64,000 bases of DNA from Ornithinimicrobium pratense (GTDB lineage Bacteria > Actinomycetota > Actinomycetes > Actinomycetales > Dermatophilaceae), in the NCBI RefSeq assembly GCF_008843165.1, contig NZ_CP044427.1, positions 3,410,001 to 3,474,000 on the forward strand. The letters are read 5' to 3'. Below, one piece after another: positions 4,960 to 53,651 of this stretch. Position numbers and translations under genes: made by a program. The stretch's first letter is position 1. Each line of letters starts with the position of its first letter. The notes under the pieces were generated by a model. That model made no database searches. It was not told where the DNA came from and worked only from the letters and a program-made list of their open reading frames with translations.

Positions 4960-6225
4960 ATGCACCTCTTCCGCCTCCACCTCGCCGGGGTCGGCCTGGG
5001 CAACCTTGCCGATGGCATCGTCGCCGGGGCAGTGCCACTCCTGGCGATCACCCTGACCCGGGACCCCCTGCTCGTCGGCCTCGTCTCCACCGCGATGTGG
5101 CTGCCCTGGCTGCTCGGGGCACTGCTCGTCGGGGTCGTGGTCGACCGCACCGACCGGGCCCGGCTGCGTCGGCTCGCCCTGGCTGCCCGGACCTGCGTCC
5201 TCGGCGCGGGCGTCGGCGTGGCCCTCGCGGACGTGCTCACGATCTGGGTGCTGCTCGCCCTGTGCCTGGCGTATGCCGTGACCGAGGTGTTCTCCGACCT
5301 GGCGGCCAGCGCGATGATCCCCCAGCTCGTCCCGCGCGAGGACCTGCCCCGGGCCAACGCACGGGTGATGGGCACCGAACGGCTGATGCAGGAGTTCGTC
5401 GGTCAGCCGATCGGCGGGGCGCTGGTCATGCTCGGCGCCGGCTGGGTGTTCGGCAGCTCGGCGGCCGTCGTCGTGCTCGTCGTGCTGCTGCTGGGCCGGC
5501 TGCGGCGGCCCGAGGGCTTCGTCGCCCCGCGCCGGTCATCCGTCGACAGCTCGGTGGCGGAGGAGGCCGCGACCGTGCGTCAGGACCTGGCCGAAGGGCT
5601 GCGCCTCGTGCTGCGCCACCCTGTCGTGCGCCCGTTCACCATCTCGGCGGCGCTGACCAACTTCGCCAACACGGCCTACTTCTCGGTCTTCGTGCTGTGG
5701 GCGGTCGGCCCGGGGTCGGCGGTCGGGCTGGAGCCCTGGCAGTTCCCTCTCCTGGTCGCGGTGCTGTCGGCGGGCGCGATCGCGGGTTCACTCGTCCCCA
5801 GCCGATGGCTGCTGCGCGTCGGCGAGGTGCGGGTGATGATCGGCTGCTGGTTCGTCAACTCGGCGCTGCTGCTGGTGCCGGTGCTGGTCCCGGCGTGGTG
5901 GGCGATCGGCCCGGTGCTGGTGGTGATCGGCGCCACCAACATGGTCGGCAACGTCATCGGCGCCAGCATCCGTCAGCGGGTGGTCCCGGCGCAGCTGCTG
6001 GGCCGGACCGGGGGCGCGACCCGCACCCTGGTCTTCGGCACGATGGCCGTCGCCGGGCCGGTCGGTGGGCTGGTCGCCCGCGAGCTGGGGCTACCCGTGC
6101 TCTTCGTGGGCGCGACCGTGATGGCGCTGCTGGTCACCGCCTGGGTAGCGACCCGGGTCGACCAGGATGTCGTCGACCGCGCCGAGGCGGCGCTGGCCGA
6201 GCAGGAGACCACCCCTGTCCGCTGA
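4960..6225 (+). CDS. MFS transporter
   Basis: A 421-residue membrane protein of the DHA-like/enterobactin-exporter (MFS_3) type with about 12 hydrophobic segments. It has the A-like loop VVDRTDRARLRR after TM2 and a long charged central loop near residues 190-215. ATG 4960 is chosen because it follows AGGAG and begins the first membrane segment, whereas upstream extension runs antisense through the regulator gene. It is probably a drug or metabolite exporter controlled by the divergent ArsR-type protein. Confidence 0.88.
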   Translation: MHLFRLHLAGVGLGNLADGIVAGAVPLLAITLTRDPLLVGLVSTAMWLPWLLGALLVGVVVDRTDRARLRRLALAARTCVLGAGVGVALADVLTIWVLLALCLAYAVTEVFSDLAASAMIPQLVPREDLPRANARVMGTERLMQEFVGQPIGGALVMLGAGWVFGSSAAVVVLVVLLLGRLRRPEGFVAPRRSSVDSSVAEEAATVRQDLAEGLRLVLRHPVVRPFTISAALTNFANTAYFSVFVLWAVGPGSAVGLEPWQFPLLVAVLSAGAIAGSLVPSRWLLRVGEVRVMIGCWFVNSALLLVPVLVPAWWAIGPVLVVIGATNMVGNVIGASIRQRVVPAQLLGRTGGATRTLVFGTMAVAGPVGGLVARELGLPVLFVGATVMALLVTAWVATRVDQDVVDRAEAALAEQETTPVR

Positions 6226-26446: not shown

Positions 26447-26998
26447 TCACTCGGTGGGCAGCACCATGACCAGGACGTCCGGGCCCTCGTCCCCGACGAC
26501 CGAGGTGAGCCATGGCGGCCGGATCGCCAGCACGTCGCGCCAGCCGGTGGACAGGTAGAGGTGGCGGGCGCTGGCGTGGTGGGGCAGCACCTCCAGGCAG
26601 GGGTGGTGACCCGCGGCCCGGATGTCCGTCACGATCGTCTCGAGCAGGGCCCTGCCGACGCCGTGCCCGCGGGCGCGCTCTGCGGTGAACAGGCCGGAGA
26701 CGTAGGAGAGCTCCTCGACCGCGCAGCCGTGGCCCTTCGCGCACGCCGCGTTCATCCGCGCGGAGTCAGGGAACCCGTGCGCCGGTCCGGTGCGACCCAC
26801 GTGGCCGACCACGTCGCCGTCGATCTCAGCGACGAAGGCGCCGAGGGCGTCCTCGGCGTGCAGGAAGACGTCGGTGCTCACCGGCAGCGGGTCGCGGAAG
26901 GGATACCGGGTGCGCGGCTGCTGCTCCAGCAGGTCCGTGCCCAGGCCCGGCAGGTCGCCCGGGCGCCGACGCCGGACGGTCGGTGTCCCGGCAGTCAT
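26447..26998 (-). CDS. GNAT-family N-acetyltransferase
   Basis: A 183-residue GNAT protein with the beta4-alpha3 acetyl-CoA segment VSGLFTAERARGHGVGRALLETIVTDIRAAGHHPCLEVLPHHASARHLYLSTGWRDV. Its ATG overlaps the stop of the trans-aconitate-methyltransferase-like gene by 4 nt, so the two are an operon. Substrate unknown. Confidence 0.88.
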   Translation of the reverse strand: MTAGTPTVRRRRPGDLPGLGTDLLEQQPRTRYPFRDPLPVSTDVFLHAEDALGAFVAEIDGDVVGHVGRTGPAHGFPDSARMNAACAKGHGCAVEELSYVSGLFTAERARGHGVGRALLETIVTDIRAAGHHPCLEVLPHHASARHLYLSTGWRDVLAIRPPWLTSVVGDEGPDVLVMVLPTE

Positions 26999-27792
26999 GC
27001 TGGTGTGTGCGCCACGGCGAACACCCGGCGGAAGGGCAGGACGACGCCATACCCCTGGTCGGGGTAGGCCTGCCGCAGCCGCCGCTTGAACTCCGCCTCG
27101 AACCTCTCTCGGACCCCCTCCGGCAGCGCCTGTAGGGTCGGCCGCGCACCCGTGCCGGAGACCCAGGTGAAGACCGGGTCGGGGTCGCTCGCGCGCTCGC
27201 CCGGCAGGACGTGCAGGTAGGTGGTCTCCCACGCGTCCACGGTGCAGCCCTGCTCCTGGAGCGCCCGCAGGTAGACCCCCGGGTCGTGCGAGGAGGGCAC
27301 GGCCACCCCCTGGGTATGCGGCGCGAACGCCGGCTCTGCTGCCAGCTCCCGGCGGATCGTGTGGCTGGGCTCGTCGAAGTTGCCGGGGACCTGCATCGCA
27401 AACCACCCGCCGGGGGCGAGCCTGCCCACCAGGGCGGGCAGCAGCTCGAGGTGGCCCGGGACCCACTGGAGGGCCGCGTTGCTGATGAGGACGTCGACGG
27501 GGTCGCCGTGGGTCTTGGCCCACGCGACGATGTCGGCCACCCGGGCGTCGATCCCCTCGACCTGCCGGGCCTTCTCGACCATCTGCGGGCTGGTGTCCAG
27601 CCCCAGGACGTGCGCCTGGGGCCAGCGCTGGGCGAGCAGCCGGGTCAGGTTGCCAGGCCCGCAGCCCAGGTCGACGACTCGTGGGGGAGCCTCGGCGCCT
27701 ACCCGCGCGAGCAGTTCGACGAACGGGCGGCCCCGCTCGTCGGCGTAGGAGAGATAGCGATCGGGGTCCCACTCATGGCTCGTCCGCGTCAC
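26995..27792 (-). CDS. tam: trans-aconitate 2-methyltransferase-like protein
   Basis: A 265-residue SAM-dependent methyltransferase with the Tam pattern: W-DPDRYLSYADERGRPFVELLARV, motif I VVDLGCGPGN, ISNAALQWVPGH and GWFAMQVPGNFDEPSH. Tam methyl-esterifies trans-aconitate and related carboxylates to limit aconitase inhibition. GTG 27792 is favoured over a longer start because TACCGT sits 7 nt upstream. It is coupled to the downstream GNAT gene. Confidence 0.88.
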   Translation of the reverse strand: MTRTSHEWDPDRYLSYADERGRPFVELLARVGAEAPPRVVDLGCGPGNLTRLLAQRWPQAHVLGLDTSPQMVEKARQVEGIDARVADIVAWAKTHGDPVDVLISNAALQWVPGHLELLPALVGRLAPGGWFAMQVPGNFDEPSHTIRRELAAEPAFAPHTQGVAVPSSHDPGVYLRALQEQGCTVDAWETTYLHVLPGERASDPDPVFTWVSGTGARPTLQALPEGVRERFEAEFKRRLRQAYPDQGYGVVLPFRRVFAVAHTPA

Positions 27793-27836: not shown

Positions 27837-27874
27837 GTCAGTCGCGCAGGGCAGGCGGGTCAGTCGCGCAGGGC
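27837..27874. repeat. 16-bp direct repeat at the 3' end of the hydrolase gene
   Basis: GTCAGTCGCGCAGGGC occurs at 27837-27852 and 27859-27874 (22-bp period). The second copy spans the stop codon of the minus-strand alpha/beta hydrolase, so the gene's last codons are duplicated just beyond its end. Confidence 0.85.
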
Positions 27875-29032
27875 GGCCAGGAGAGCGTCGACGAAGGTGT
27901 CGGTGTCGTCCAACCAGGGGTAGTGGGCGGCGCCGGCCAGCTCCACGGCCTCGCCGTGCGGGAAAAGTGCGGCAAGGTCCCGGGCCTGACGAGTGGTCGG
28001 GTGCAGGTCGAGCTCCCCGTGCAGGACGGTGACCGGGCCGGCGAACCCTGCCGCGGCTTCGCGGATCTGCTCCGTGTCCGGCAGCGGCTCGGCGTAGTAG
28101 GCAGCCAGCCGGTCGGCGCGGTCCCCGGTGGTCGTGGCCGCCAGCGCCTCGTGCTGCTCGCTCCACCGGCCGAAGGAGATGCGGGGATGCTCCACCGGGG
28201 TCCCGGAGCAGTCCACGGCCGCACGGGCGGCGGCATACTCCTTGTCCTGGGCGCAGCGGCGGGCGATCAGTGCCTCCACCCCGTCCGCGTCCTCCACCAC
28301 CCCGGCGACGCGGATCGCCGGGCAGACCAGGACGAGCCCGCGCACCCGGTCAGGGTGGGCAGCGAGGTAGGCCAGGGCCAGCGCGGCCCCGGCCGAGTGG
28401 GCGATGAGATTGACCGAGTCCGGGCCGAGGTCGGCACGCGCGGCGTCGACGACCGGCACCAGCTCGGTCACCCTGCGCCAGGGCAGGTCGACCACGGCGA
28501 GGGGATGCCGATGGGCGGCCCCGCCCAGGTCGCCGAGGTAGTGGGTGTCAAGGAGCGGGCCGCCGGGCAGGACCAGCGCCGGTCGGACGACGTCCAGGCC
28601 AAGCTCAGCCGTCCCCGCCGGCTCAGTCCCGAGCATGCGGTAGGCCCCTTCGCCGGTGTGTCGCACATCCTCCTGTTGCAGGAGGAGCCGCAGGGCAGCA
28701 AGCACTGCGGGCCCGGCGCTCGCGACCGACCCGGGGACGGCAGCGGCATACTCCTGCGACTGTCGGACCAGACCGAGATGCGACAGCGTCTCCCCCGGCG
28801 AGTAGCCCTCGTAGTCGACCCGGGTCACGCGGCCCGCCTCGCGCTCCACGGTGAGGTCGATGCAGGCGCGTCCGGATCGCTGTTCCCGCACCTGGGGCAG
28901 ATGCGGAAGGTGCTCCTGCACCAGGGCGTAGTTGCCGCACCACAGCAGGTAGTCCTCCCCACCCTGCGGGTCCCCGACGTCCCAGGGCTCCAGCAGCGCG
29001 CCGATCTGCTCGGTCAACTCAGCCCAGGTCAT
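27860..29032 (-). CDS. alpha/beta hydrolase with extra N-terminal region
   Basis: A 390-residue protein. The C-terminal ~240 residues form an alpha/beta hydrolase: HSAGAALALAYL with nucleophile Ser near 213, Asp in LHGELDLHP and His in AGAAHYPWLDD. The first ~130 residues (MTWAELTEQIGALLEPWDVGDPQ onward) are not part of that fold and I do not recognise them; they are acidic and predicted soluble. ATG 29032 is chosen over a longer start. Reaction unknown. Confidence 0.8.
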   Translation of the reverse strand: MTWAELTEQIGALLEPWDVGDPQGGEDYLLWCGNYALVQEHLPHLPQVREQRSGRACIDLTVEREAGRVTRVDYEGYSPGETLSHLGLVRQSQEYAAAVPGSVASAGPAVLAALRLLLQQEDVRHTGEGAYRMLGTEPAGTAELGLDVVRPALVLPGGPLLDTHYLGDLGGAAHRHPLAVVDLPWRRVTELVPVVDAARADLGPDSVNLIAHSAGAALALAYLAAHPDRVRGLVLVCPAIRVAGVVEDADGVEALIARRCAQDKEYAAARAAVDCSGTPVEHPRISFGRWSEQHEALAATTTGDRADRLAAYYAEPLPDTEQIREAAAGFAGPVTVLHGELDLHPTTRQARDLAALFPHGEAVELAGAAHYPWLDDTDTFVDALLAALRD

Positions 29033-29118
29033 AGGGCCGATGCTGCCGGATCGTCGTGCGTCGGACAACACCTCGACCCGCTGGCCAAAGCCGTCGCGGC
29101 AGTGACGCCACGCCCAGT

Positions 29119-30525
29119 TCAGCTCAGGAGGTCGCCTAGACCGGCGCTGGTGGGGACGAGCCCGCAGGCGCGCTCGTAGAAATCGGTGTGCTCCGCCGCG
29201 TAGTCAGCATGCAGCCACCGACAGCCGCGGGCCCTTGCCTCGTCCGCGGCTGCGCGCACGAGCGCGACACCGATCCCGCACCCTTGGCGGGCAGGGTCAA
29301 CGCACGTGTCGAGGAGGATCGCGTGCGCACCGCCGTCACCGACCACGTTGACGAATCCGACCAGCTCGCCGTCCGATCGGGCGGTCACCCAGAAAAGGCT
29401 GTGCCGCTCCAGCCGCTCGCGCCATGGGACACCAGCCGGTTCGTGTCGGAAAGCCGTGGCGTGCAGGTTGTCCAGCTCTGCGTCGGTGAGGGCGCCGCGC
29501 ACCGCGAGAGCCACGTCCGGTTGCACCCGCAGCTCAACCTGAAGCCAGGGGAAGCCGTCGAGGTCGTCCGCGGTGAGCGGGTCACCCTCGACCTCGGGCC
29601 CGGGCAGAAACTGGACGCCGGTGCCCGTCCGGCCGGTGCCGGGCAGCTCGCGCAGCTCGGCTGTGGGGATGCCGTGCTCGTAGCGCTGCGTCCACGCCCC
29701 GCTGGCCCGGTAGTTGCTGTGTTCGAGCCAGGTGGAGAGCGCTGCCACGGTGGACATCCCCTGGCGCGGCAGCCCGTCCGGCAGCAGCGGGGCATCGGGC
29801 TGCCCGAAGAAGCGGACATCCCGGGTGGCCATGACGGGCTTGCGGATCACCTGACCCGCGGGGTCCCGCCGGGTGTCGGTGCCGCGCCCGTCGTCGACGA
29901 CGGAGACCGACCCGTCCCGGCGCTGGGTGATGACCACGTGCCCGGTGCGGCCACGGTGCTCCGCCTCCTCCTCAGCGTAGGCGAGGACCTCCAGAATGAG
30001 GTGCCGGAGCCCGCCCGCGGCGTACCGTCCCGGGTCGTTCCTGATCTCCCTGAGGTGGTCCTGGTCGACCAGCCGCCCCCAGTCGTGCGTCGTGACCTCC
30101 CACGAGCTCGGGTCCCCAGGCGTGGCCTCGATCAGGTCACGCAGCCGCTCGAGGTCGGCCCGCACCGCGGCTGCGTCCAACTCCAGCTCGGCCGACGCCC
30201 TACCCTGCTGCCGGAGCGTGAAGATGACCTCTGAGCCGTCCGGGTGCGGCACGACCCGCAGCGGGTTGGTCACCACCTCACCGTCGGGCAGCACGACGAC
30301 GTGGTCGAGCACGCCGTAGCTGTTCGCCCCCGCGAACTGCACCCGGACCGTGCCCATCGGGGACTCCACGACCAGCCACTCGCCCTCCCGGCGCAGCTCA
30401 CCCGTGGCCAGGCCGGCCGCCCAGCCGGGCAGGTTGTTCGGATCACCGGCGAAGGCGCTGACCTCGGCCGCAGGCCGACTGATGACCACGCTCACGTGCT
30501 CGCTGCGCATGTGTCCGTGGCTCAC
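29119..30525 (-). CDS. three-domain fusion: SRPBCC + GyrB-like ATPase domain + GNAT
   Basis: A 468-residue protein with three recognisable parts. Residues 8-135 look like an SRPBCC/polyketide-cyclase ligand-binding fold. Residues 150-325 resemble the ATPase domain of GyrB: GGLRHLILEVLAYAEEEA parallels the GyrB helix carrying the catalytic Glu, then VSVVDDGRG, and YEHGIPTAEL...GTGRTGTGVQFLPG parallels the GyrB transducer entry. The Asn that binds Mg in GyrB is replaced (VLAYAEEEA), so hydrolysis is doubtful. Residues 345-468 are GNAT (DPARQGCGIGVALVRAAADEARARGCRWLHADYAAEH). The start follows GATGAT by 6 nt. Function unknown. Confidence 0.8.
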   Translation of the reverse strand: MSHGHMRSEHVSVVISRPAAEVSAFAGDPNNLPGWAAGLATGELRREGEWLVVESPMGTVRVQFAGANSYGVLDHVVVLPDGEVVTNPLRVVPHPDGSEVIFTLRQQGRASAELELDAAAVRADLERLRDLIEATPGDPSSWEVTTHDWGRLVDQDHLREIRNDPGRYAAGGLRHLILEVLAYAEEEAEHRGRTGHVVITQRRDGSVSVVDDGRGTDTRRDPAGQVIRKPVMATRDVRFFGQPDAPLLPDGLPRQGMSTVAALSTWLEHSNYRASGAWTQRYEHGIPTAELRELPGTGRTGTGVQFLPGPEVEGDPLTADDLDGFPWLQVELRVQPDVALAVRGALTDAELDNLHATAFRHEPAGVPWRERLERHSLFWVTARSDGELVGFVNVVGDGGAHAILLDTCVDPARQGCGIGVALVRAAADEARARGCRWLHADYAAEHTDFYERACGLVPTSAGLGDLLS

Positions 30526-52713: not shown

Positions 52714-53536
52714 CTAGAGGGCGCTCTGGATGGCAGCAGACTGTCTGGCCAGCCAGTGTCTGGCTCGGGGCAGCTTGTCTTTCACGCCCTCGTCCCACCA
52801 CCGGCGGAAGACAGGGTCAACCTCGGCGGCAGCCTGCGCCGTGAGAGCGAAGTTGGCCACCATCCGATTCGCCAACGGAATCACTTGGGCCCGCTGGCCC
52901 GCCGTCATTCCGTAGGCGTCGGCGAAAGCGCGCACCCGGGTGGGAATGTGTGCCTTGACCAGCGAGGAAGCCCGGTCCTCAGGATCGACAAGGGGTGCCC
53001 ACCAGTAGAGCGCGTTGGCGAGGTCGGCGACACGCGTGGTCGGCCGGGCAAGGTCGAAGTCGATCAACGCCTTCGGGCGTGAGTCGGCGAACACAACGTT
53101 GCCGGGGCAGTAGTCCATGTGCGACACGAGCTCCGCCTTGTCGATCCTCCGCCTTGTCGATCAGGGGGACCACCCCGGCAGGCCGTCTTCCAGGAGTTCC
53201 GCCCCAGGTCGCACCAGTTGGCGGGAGCCAACCGTCTGCCGCTTCGTGCAGCCGACGAATGAGCGCCCCCAGTGCCTCTAGCGCGTCTACCGTCGTCGCG
53301 TAGGCAGGTAACGGCTCGACCGGCACGTCACCAGCCACGTAGGAGAGGATCTCCCGTCCTTGTGCGTCATACCCCAGCGGCTCGGGACACTCGGTGAATC
53401 CCCGACTGCGCACGTGCGCAAGATACGCCTGGATGGTGGCCGTGAACGGCCGCACCGGACGGCGCACGGTCTGCCCAACCCGGACCACGTGGGTGACACC
53501 CTCGCTAGCCAGCGTCTGCTCGACATCCTCGGTCAC
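52714..53536 (-). pseudogene. APH-fold phosphotransferase broken by 16-bp tandem duplication
   Basis: The 5' part (MTEDVEQTLASEGVTHVVRVGQTVRRPVRPF ... GVVPLIDKAE) and the 3' part (VSHMDYCPGNVVFADSRPKALIDFDLARPTTRVADLANALYWW) are in different frames. They are joined by a perfect 16-bp tandem duplication (53131-53162). Removing one copy restores a continuous 268-residue aminoglycoside/choline-kinase-fold enzyme with the HxDxxxxN loop and DFD metal motif. GTG 53536 lies 6 nt after TACGGT. As it stands the protein stops before the catalytic loop. Confidence 0.9.
53131..53162. repeat. perfect 16-bp tandem duplication
   Basis: CTCCGCCTTGTCGATC twice in direct succession (53131-53146, 53147-53162). 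It shifts the reading frame of the phosphotransferase gene; reversion needs loss of one unit. Confidence 0.95.
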
Positions 53537-53651
53537 CCCAGAACCGTAGTACCGGTACGGCGCCTGCGACTGAGAGCGGGTGCGCAGTCATCGGCGAAGT
53601 CGAGATGTCACGACCATGCTGGTTTTGCCCTGGAGCTTAAGTGGCAGGGGT

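What the first reader, a model, noticed from the sequence alone, without database searches (positions are those of the whole stretch)
29119..30525. SRPBCC domain, GyrB-like ATPase domain and GNAT in one protein
Residues 150-325 match the GyrB N-terminal domain in several separate places (helix with catalytic Glu, VSVVDDGRG, YEHGIP, TGTGVQF), but the Mg-binding Asn is replaced. It sits between a ligand-binding fold and an acetyltransferase. This could be a nucleotide- or ligand-gated acetyltransferase, or a gyrase-drug decoy. I know of no described system with this order.
Basis: partly seen in the sequence, partly recalled or inferred. Interest (0 to 1): 0.7.

Follow-up and report, generated by a model that had tools for sequence, protein, structure and literature searches.

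The report
Rewired gyrase-like domain fused to acetyltransferase
One actinobacterial protein joins a ligand-binding fold, a copy of the gyrase ATP-binding domain whose phosphate site has been rewritten, and an acetyltransferase; the middle part belongs to a large, apparently undescribed family that is usually a small protein on its own and has repeatedly been joined to enzymes of the kinds that modify small molecules.

The parts
29119..30525 (-). Whole gene, 468 aa, GTG start (ATG six codons in); SRPBCC + GyrB-type GHKL + GNAT
   Evidence: ORF and translation; homologues over the full length: P0002 (the window's own protein) and P0003, 79% identical, 462 aa
30124..30510 (-). SRPBCC (START-like) domain, residues 6-134
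   Evidence: PDB 2qpv E 5.2e-32; Polyketide_cyc2 E 2.9e-5, just under cut-off; AlphaFold2 of this part is poor, pLDDT about 25-51
29527..30102 (-). GyrB-type GHKL-like domain, residues 142-333
   Evidence: gyrB models E about 1e-15; PDB GyrB; AlphaFold2 pLDDT 89.2, pTM 0.86; GyrB/ParE best folds
30079..30090 (-). THDW segment, residues 146-149, in register with the N-terminal arm (YDSS) of GyrB
   Evidence: Alignment; T, H and W invariant in 24 and in 20 aligned members
29977..29991 (-). N-box remnant, residues 179-183 (E-V-L-A-Y): Glu42 kept, Asp45 to Ala, Asn46 to Tyr
   Evidence: 140 aligned members
29881..29895 (-). G1 box DDGRG, residues 211-215 (Asp73, Arg76, Gly77 kept)
   Evidence: D73, R76, G77 in 140 of 140 members
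29758..29769 (-). G2-box position, residues 253-256 (P-R-Q-G in place of H-G-V-G; Gly117 to Arg254)
   Evidence: Arg in 140 of 140 members
29707..29709 (-). Arg273 = E. coli Arg136 (contact of aminocoumarins, recalled)
   Evidence: Arg in 140 of 140 members
29119..29526 (-). GNAT acetyltransferase domain, residues 334-468, with QGCGIG acetyl-CoA-type motif (motif recalled)
   Evidence: Acetyltransf_1 E 1.5e-14, over cut-off
27860..29071 (-). Alpha/beta-hydrolase gene 47 bp downstream on the same strand; shares with the fusion gene a slot that differs in a close relative
   Evidence: Abhydrolase_1 E 2.2e-13; slot between methyltransferase and HAD genes holds another gene in G002

Best explanation
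The gene makes a chimeric small-molecule-modifying protein. Its middle domain descends from the ATPase domain of GyrB but is no longer a conventional Mg-ATPase: it keeps the GyrB fold and the adenine end of the pocket, and has a new, strictly conserved polar site where Mg-triphosphate used to sit. I infer that this domain, with the SRPBCC domain, binds a specific small molecule (adenine-like, or one that fits the GyrB ATP site), and that the tethered GNAT acetylates that molecule or a related one, so that the protein inactivates or tailors a metabolite or drug. Shown here: anatomy, fold, residue replacements, family, recurrent fusion. Inferred: ligand binding, acetylation, joint action.
For: Fold. 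Pocket: adenine end kept, Mg/phosphate end replaced by other residues fixed in 136-140 of 140 members, which argues for a rewritten site rather than decay. Recurrent fusion: of 49 non-GyrB proteins of 257 aa or more that carry the domain, 12 have GNAT and 7 APH Pfam domains; GNAT fusions sit on six branches of a 133-row tree, and one APH family occurs before and after the domain. Six of 13 partner lineages being GNAT is far above gene abundance (P 6e-9; 13 lineages and 3300 genes are my own counts, 41 GNAT matches). Relatives of the other two modules have partners of the same sort: the SRPBCC type with an AAC(3)-XI-like GNAT (114-116 bits, cut-off 300) and this GNAT type with an aminoglycoside-nucleotidyltransferase-like domain (PF10706, E 4.1e-9).
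Against: No ligand or substrate is known. GNAT and APH are common and fusion-prone folds with many non-antibiotic substrates. Free-standing members show no conserved neighbour, and GNATs are not significantly enriched beside them (7 of 159 immediate neighbours, 6 of 156 second, 10 of 498 farther; Fisher P 0.15 for immediate against farther). P0004 lacks the GHKL core yet keeps SRPBCC and GNAT about 80% identical, so the module is dispensable in one relative.
Confidence: 0.35

Rival explanations
1. Chance fusion: three independent accessory domains share one polypeptide, each keeping the (unknown) job it has as a free-standing protein, with no joint mechanism.
For: Each module occurs apart in the same genus and no match in 30 other genus genomes covers two modules. 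The three-domain order was found in only one further protein. P0004 has lost the GHKL core. The GNAT part has lower GC3 (0.80) than the other two parts (0.91, 0.93), as if joined separately.
Against: GNAT partners recur on six branches and in both orders; the fused domain keeps the family's invariant residues.
Confidence: 0.27
2. Gyrase-drug trap: the domain is a target mimic that captures ATP-site gyrase inhibitors (aminocoumarins, kibdelomycin, cyclothialidine); the GNAT or APH parts inactivate the captured drug.
For: Adenine/drug end kept: D73, R76, G77, R136 in 140 of 140, T165 in 138, E50 in 135, V43 in 133. The folds closest to the model include novobiocin and clorobiocin complexes (these are GyrB structures, so expected). 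Accessory, mostly in antibiotic-producing phyla members, sometimes on plasmids.
Against: Two recalled drug contacts are lost in the family: Asn46 in all and Pro79 in all of 140; Ile78 is Thr in all. The kept residues also form the GyrB adenine site, so their retention is not specific to drugs. No link to any drug gene cluster was tested.
Confidence: 0.13
3. Nucleotide- or cofactor-gated acetyltransferase: the domain senses an adenine nucleotide or an adenine-bearing cofactor and switches the GNAT.
For: Asp73/Thr165/Gly77 adenine end and Glu42 kept. Several fusion partners use adenine-bearing cofactors: GNAT, APH-type kinase, methyltransferase (cofactors recalled).
Against: Mg and triphosphate ligands are gone and no transducer domain follows; a gate would need a ligand other than Mg-ATP.
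Confidence: 0.11
4. The rewritten site is itself a catalytic site: a new enzyme built on a GHKL fold.
For: Lys229, Asp236, Arg238, Asp250, Arg254, His269 and Asn271 are fixed in 140 of 140 members, with Glu179, Asp211, Arg214 and Arg273.
Against: Positions relative to each other in space were not computed; fixed residues may serve binding only.
Confidence: 0.09
5. The domain acts on gyrase or topoisomerase IV itself, pairing with GyrB/ParE through the N-terminal arm (THDW).
For: THDW is in ungapped register with the GyrB arm that crosses to the partner subunit, and nearly invariant.
Against: In GyrB that arm contacts bound ATP (recalled), which this family probably does not bind; it would not explain fusion to GNAT and APH.
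Confidence: 0.05

Closest known systems
ATPase domain of DNA gyrase B / ParE (24-kDa GHKL fragment; 5mmn, 7ptf, 1EI1)
   Same: Fold, co-linear N-terminal arm, Glu42, Asp73, Arg76, Gly77, Gly119, Arg136, Thr165
   Different: No transducer, TOPRIM or C-terminal domains; Asp45, Asn46, Lys103, Tyr109, His116 and Gly117 kept in none of 140 members
MTOPVIB, topoisomerase-VIB-like protein with a degenerate GHKL fold (PMC11077084; search listing and start of abstract only)
   Same: A topoisomerase-derived GHKL domain that has diverged from its ATPase ancestor
   Different: Type IIB lineage, eukaryotic, part of a DNA-cleaving complex; no acetyltransferase
SRPBCC-GNAT fusions with an AAC(3)-XI-like GNAT (P0032, P0036 and kin)
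   Same: SRPBCC part 53-62% identical to the window's, GNAT at the C-terminus
   Different: No GHKL domain; another GNAT type, matching AAC(3)-XI at 114-116 bits, below its cut-off of 300
GNAT-GHKL and GHKL-GNAT proteins (P0010, P0015, P0027, P0175, P0020, P0182, P0183)
   Same: Same GHKL family fused to an acetyltransferase
   Different: No SRPBCC domain; GNAT regions with no full-length BLAST similarity to the window's (only one 28-residue match)

Membership tests
GHKL superfamily | Bergerat (GHKL) fold of the GyrB 24K type | tested here: met
GHKL superfamily | N box with the Mg-binding Asn (motif recalled) | tested here: not met
   Glu42 kept 140/140 but Asn46 is Tyr in 137 and His in 3
GHKL superfamily | G1 box DxGxG | tested here: met
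   D73, G75, R76, G77: 139-140 of 140
GHKL superfamily | G2 box / ATP-lid glycines and lysine | tested here: not met
   G101, G102, K103, H116, G117 kept in 0 of 140; G119 in 140
GHKL superfamily | ATP binding and hydrolysis | not testable with these tools
   Needs purified protein
DNA gyrase B / ParE | Curated full-length model score (transducer, TOPRIM, C-terminal parts present) | tested here: not met
   TIGR01059 56.9 bits vs cut-off 882.4, matching model positions 12-171 of 639
GNAT acetyltransferases | Pfam GNAT score over the curated cut-off | tested here: met
   Acetyltransf_1 54.7 bits vs 20.7
GNAT acetyltransferases | Acetyl-CoA-dependent acetylation | not testable with these tools
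   Needs an assay; the Q/RxxGxG/A-type motif is seen by eye (recalled motif)
SRPBCC (START-like) superfamily | Sequence match to a solved member or a curated model | tested here: met
   2qpv E 5.2e-32; Pfam just under cut-off here, over it in P0004
Aminocoumarin-type drug site (target-mimic reading) | Contacts Asn46, Asp73, Arg76, Pro79, Arg136, Thr165 (list recalled) | tested here: inconclusive
   D73, R76, R136 140/140 and T165 138/140 kept; N46 and P79 0/140

The most novel reading that the evidence does not exclude
A gyrase ATPase domain was copied, stripped of its ATP chemistry and turned into a widespread stand-alone trap for ATP-site gyrase antibiotics. Some lineages then fused this trap to acetyltransferases or kinases that inactivate the captured drug: resistance by a captured piece of the drug's own target.
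Probability: 0.13. Interest if true: 0.85.

Novelty: new variant of a known kind. Interest (0 to 1): 0.55.

Why it matters
Databases label this family gyrase subunit B or ATP-binding protein, yet its Mg/phosphate site has been replaced by a different, equally fixed set of residues. It would be a clear bacterial case of a topoisomerase ATPase domain recruited to other chemistry. It keeps the end of the pocket where several natural antibiotics bind and is fused repeatedly to enzyme types that can inactivate antibiotics, so simple binding tests could show whether it is a new detoxification or resistance route.

Tried and rejected
Conserved operon partner: genes called in 80 loci and clustered (813 neighbour genes) show mainly vertical synteny in Kribbella and a few Streptomyces, plus common families such as ABC and regulator genes; rejected. 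Long upstream frames as fusions: the Pfam scan of 29 long frames found one, DUF3626, taken to be L068 because its domain is identical to that of P0008; the others gave no partner domain and look like open frames of high-GC DNA.

GNAT at 26447-27004 as a functional partner: it is 43% identical to the GNAT fused to this domain in P0010 and the only genome match to that part, but a close relative keeps that GNAT in place without the fusion gene, so I treat the closeness as probably coincidental. Viral origin: 3 pattern matches in viral contigs, none a relative; one phage record matches at 33% identity and was not pursued. Anti-phage defence: of five proteins scanned, one weak PADLOC match (E 0.085) in the GNAT part of P0183. 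The C-terminal part of P0179/P0191: labelled APH2 in the tree from a kinase-like motif seen by eye, but Pfam found nothing in P0179, so not counted as APH. Fusions P0011 (isochorismatase, looks frame-shifted) and P0178 (AhpC) are uncertain and are counted only among the four single cases. Spatial arrangement of the new residues: not computed, no coordinates were available. Co-occurrence with gyrase-inhibitor gene clusters was not tested.

Full report

THE FAMILY. A profile search returned 2226 proteins at E<=1e-10 among 8000 scored; the 120 listed are 192-307 aa, most near 200, named ATP-binding protein, DNA gyrase subunit B, topoisomerase subunit B, hypothetical protein, or nothing. A scan of GTDB genomes gave 201 relatives from 219 pattern matches, of which the best 80 were kept. 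Of these 80, 77 carry actinobacterial names and one each Myxococcota, Acidobacteriota and Bacillota. My gene caller gives a single-domain-sized gene (185-240 aa) over the domain in 71 of 80, a 490-aa DUF3626 fusion in one (L068) and no call in eight. The family is patchy: 8 of 58 relatives' genomes, the window's own included; 3 of 396 drawn over the phylum, own included, with only 8 candidates scored per genome; 29 of 199 of the genus of G079, taken to be Streptomyces because one place in it (G467, contig 2) matches the position on the named Streptomyces sp. NBC_01237 plasmid; and 10 of 72,556 plasmid records, nine Streptomyces and one Pseudonocardia.

THE POCKET. I aligned 140 members (the 120 listed of 2226, and the 20 rows of alignment A3) with six GyrB/ParE proteins and E. 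coli GyrB. At the adenine end, identity to E. coli is 133 (V43), 135 (E50), 124 (V71), 140 (D73), 140 (R76), 140 (G77), 138 (T165) and 139 (V167) of 140; I78 is Thr in all, and I94 is Val in 125 and Ile in 15. Arg136 is kept in 140. At the Mg/phosphate end only E42 (140), G114 (133) and G119 (140) are widely kept among 16 positions; L115 is kept in 22, K110 in 2, and D45, N46, H99, A100, G101, G102, K103, Y109, H116, G117 and V118 in none. Most replacements are as fixed as the originals were: Ala for D45, Asp for H99, Arg for G101, Phe for G102, Arg for G117, Lys for E92, Asp for G113, His for L132, Asn for I134 and Trp for H141, each in 140 of 140; Tyr for N46 in 137 and Phe for K103 in 136. 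Positions 109, 110 and 115 vary. This looks like a rewritten site rather than decay. Pro79, a recalled aminocoumarin contact, is lost (Asp in 139), which counts against the drug reading. The THDW segment is in ungapped register with the GyrB N-terminal arm. Functional roles of the E. coli residues are recalled from the GyrB literature, not from a call.

THE FUSIONS. A search limited to proteins of 257-819 aa by the tool's length rule found 54 with the domain, five of them ordinary GyrB. Of the other 49, twelve carry GNAT Pfam domains (the window's own copy and P0003 among them), seven APH, three DUF3626, one each isochorismatase, AhpC, MarR and methyltransferase, and 23 none. Order varies: GNAT before the domain (P0010, P0015, P0027, P0192) or after it (P0001, P0003, P0020, P0175, P0180-P0183); one APH family (65-90% identical among members) before it in four and after it in three. 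On a 133-row tree GNAT fusions occupy six branches; free-standing against fused needs 10 changes, of which well-supported branches force at least 4. Some fusions lie on long contigs: Aeromicrobium (175 kb), a Propionibacteriaceae MAG (363 kb) and Arsenicicoccus (3.5 Mb). Against gene abundance GNAT partners are over-represented (the 13 lineages and 3300 genes are my own counts), but GNATs fuse often. GNATs are not significantly enriched next to the free-standing genes. So this evidence is suggestive only.

THE WINDOW'S VERSION. Besides P0002, which is the window's own protein, only P0003 (79%) shares the three-domain order among the proteins found. The genus is taken to be Ornithinimicrobium, because genomes G019 and G020 of the same genus contain the named O. 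sp. F0845 and O. murale loci. Among 31 genomes of the genus, the GHKL domain is in five (own included), this GNAT type in the own genome and four more, and the SRPBCC type in the own genome and ten more (two by short matches). No match in the other 30 covers two domains; one GHKL match (G019) runs 18 residues past the domain through a stop codon. Where two modules share a genome (G005, G010, G016) they are on different contigs or about 3 Mb apart. P0004 has SRPBCC and GNAT with the C-terminal tail of the GHKL domain but not its core, which reads as in-frame loss from a three-domain ancestor. In the relative G002 the neighbours are conserved (83-95% for methyltransferase, HAD, S8 protease, GNAT and DDAH genes), but the place of the hydrolase gene and the fusion gene holds a gene that looks by eye like a metal-transporting P-type ATPase. 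So the fusion gene and the hydrolase gene 47 bp downstream sit in a variable slot.

HOW IT PROBABLY WORKS. A kept adenine end with a new, fixed set of charged and polar residues points to binding of a specific ligand without Mg-ATP. Tethering to GNAT, and elsewhere to APH, points to chemical modification of that ligand or of molecules like it. Relatives of the SRPBCC and GNAT parts are also fused to drug-modifier-like domains. Nothing beyond anatomy is shown: ligand, substrate and joint action are inference. The strongest points against are P0004, the lack of any conserved neighbour, and the general fusion habit of GNATs.

WHAT IS KNOWN. Eight full-text searches in an open-access library returned no paper that I could see describing this family or this order of domains. 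I read only listings and the starts of abstracts; most subscription papers are not covered. A topoisomerase-VIB-like protein with a degenerate GHKL fold (PMC11077084, listing and start of abstract) is the nearest precedent seen. I rate the finding a new variant of a known kind: known folds, a new and strictly conserved pocket, and a recurrent fusion habit.

Noticed in passing
window about 52714-53587, minus strand: A kinase gene related to the APH family that is fused to the GHKL domain elsewhere (up to 43% identity); its match is split over two overlapping frames, so it looks frame-shifted. Described only.
   Followed up: partly
window 27860-30525: Variable slot: hydrolase gene plus fusion gene here; in the same-genus genome G002 (L143 9572-11749) a gene that looks like a metal P-type ATPase instead, with conserved genes on both sides.
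   Followed up: yes
window 26447-27004, minus strand: A GNAT 43% identical to the GNAT fused to this GHKL family in P0010, the only genome match to that part, about 2.5 kb away; but it is kept in G002 without the fusion gene.
   Followed up: yes
P0004 (290 aa, metagenome): An 80%-identical relative that kept SRPBCC, GNAT and the GHKL tail but not the GHKL core, apparently an in-frame loss.
   Followed up: partly
window 29119-29526: The GNAT part has lower GC3 (0.80) than the SRPBCC (0.91) and GHKL (0.93) parts, as if of other origin.
   Followed up: no
L078: A MAG titled Acidobacteria bacterium ATN4 carries the same sequence as G005, which genome search places in the window's actinobacterial genus; the record name is probably wrong.
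   Followed up: yes
L080: A member in a contig titled Sporosarcina beigongshangi, at 68% GC, much above what I recall for that genus; contamination is likely.
   Followed up: partly
L021 about 5107-5821: In Phycicoccus endophyticus an APH-like frame (about 32% identity to the fused APHs) lies directly upstream of a free-standing member; 1 of 159 immediate neighbours.
   Followed up: no
L124 (Streptomyces sp. NBC_00704 plasmid): A free-standing member lies 70 bp behind an MFS transporter gene and a helix-turn-helix gene.
   Followed up: no
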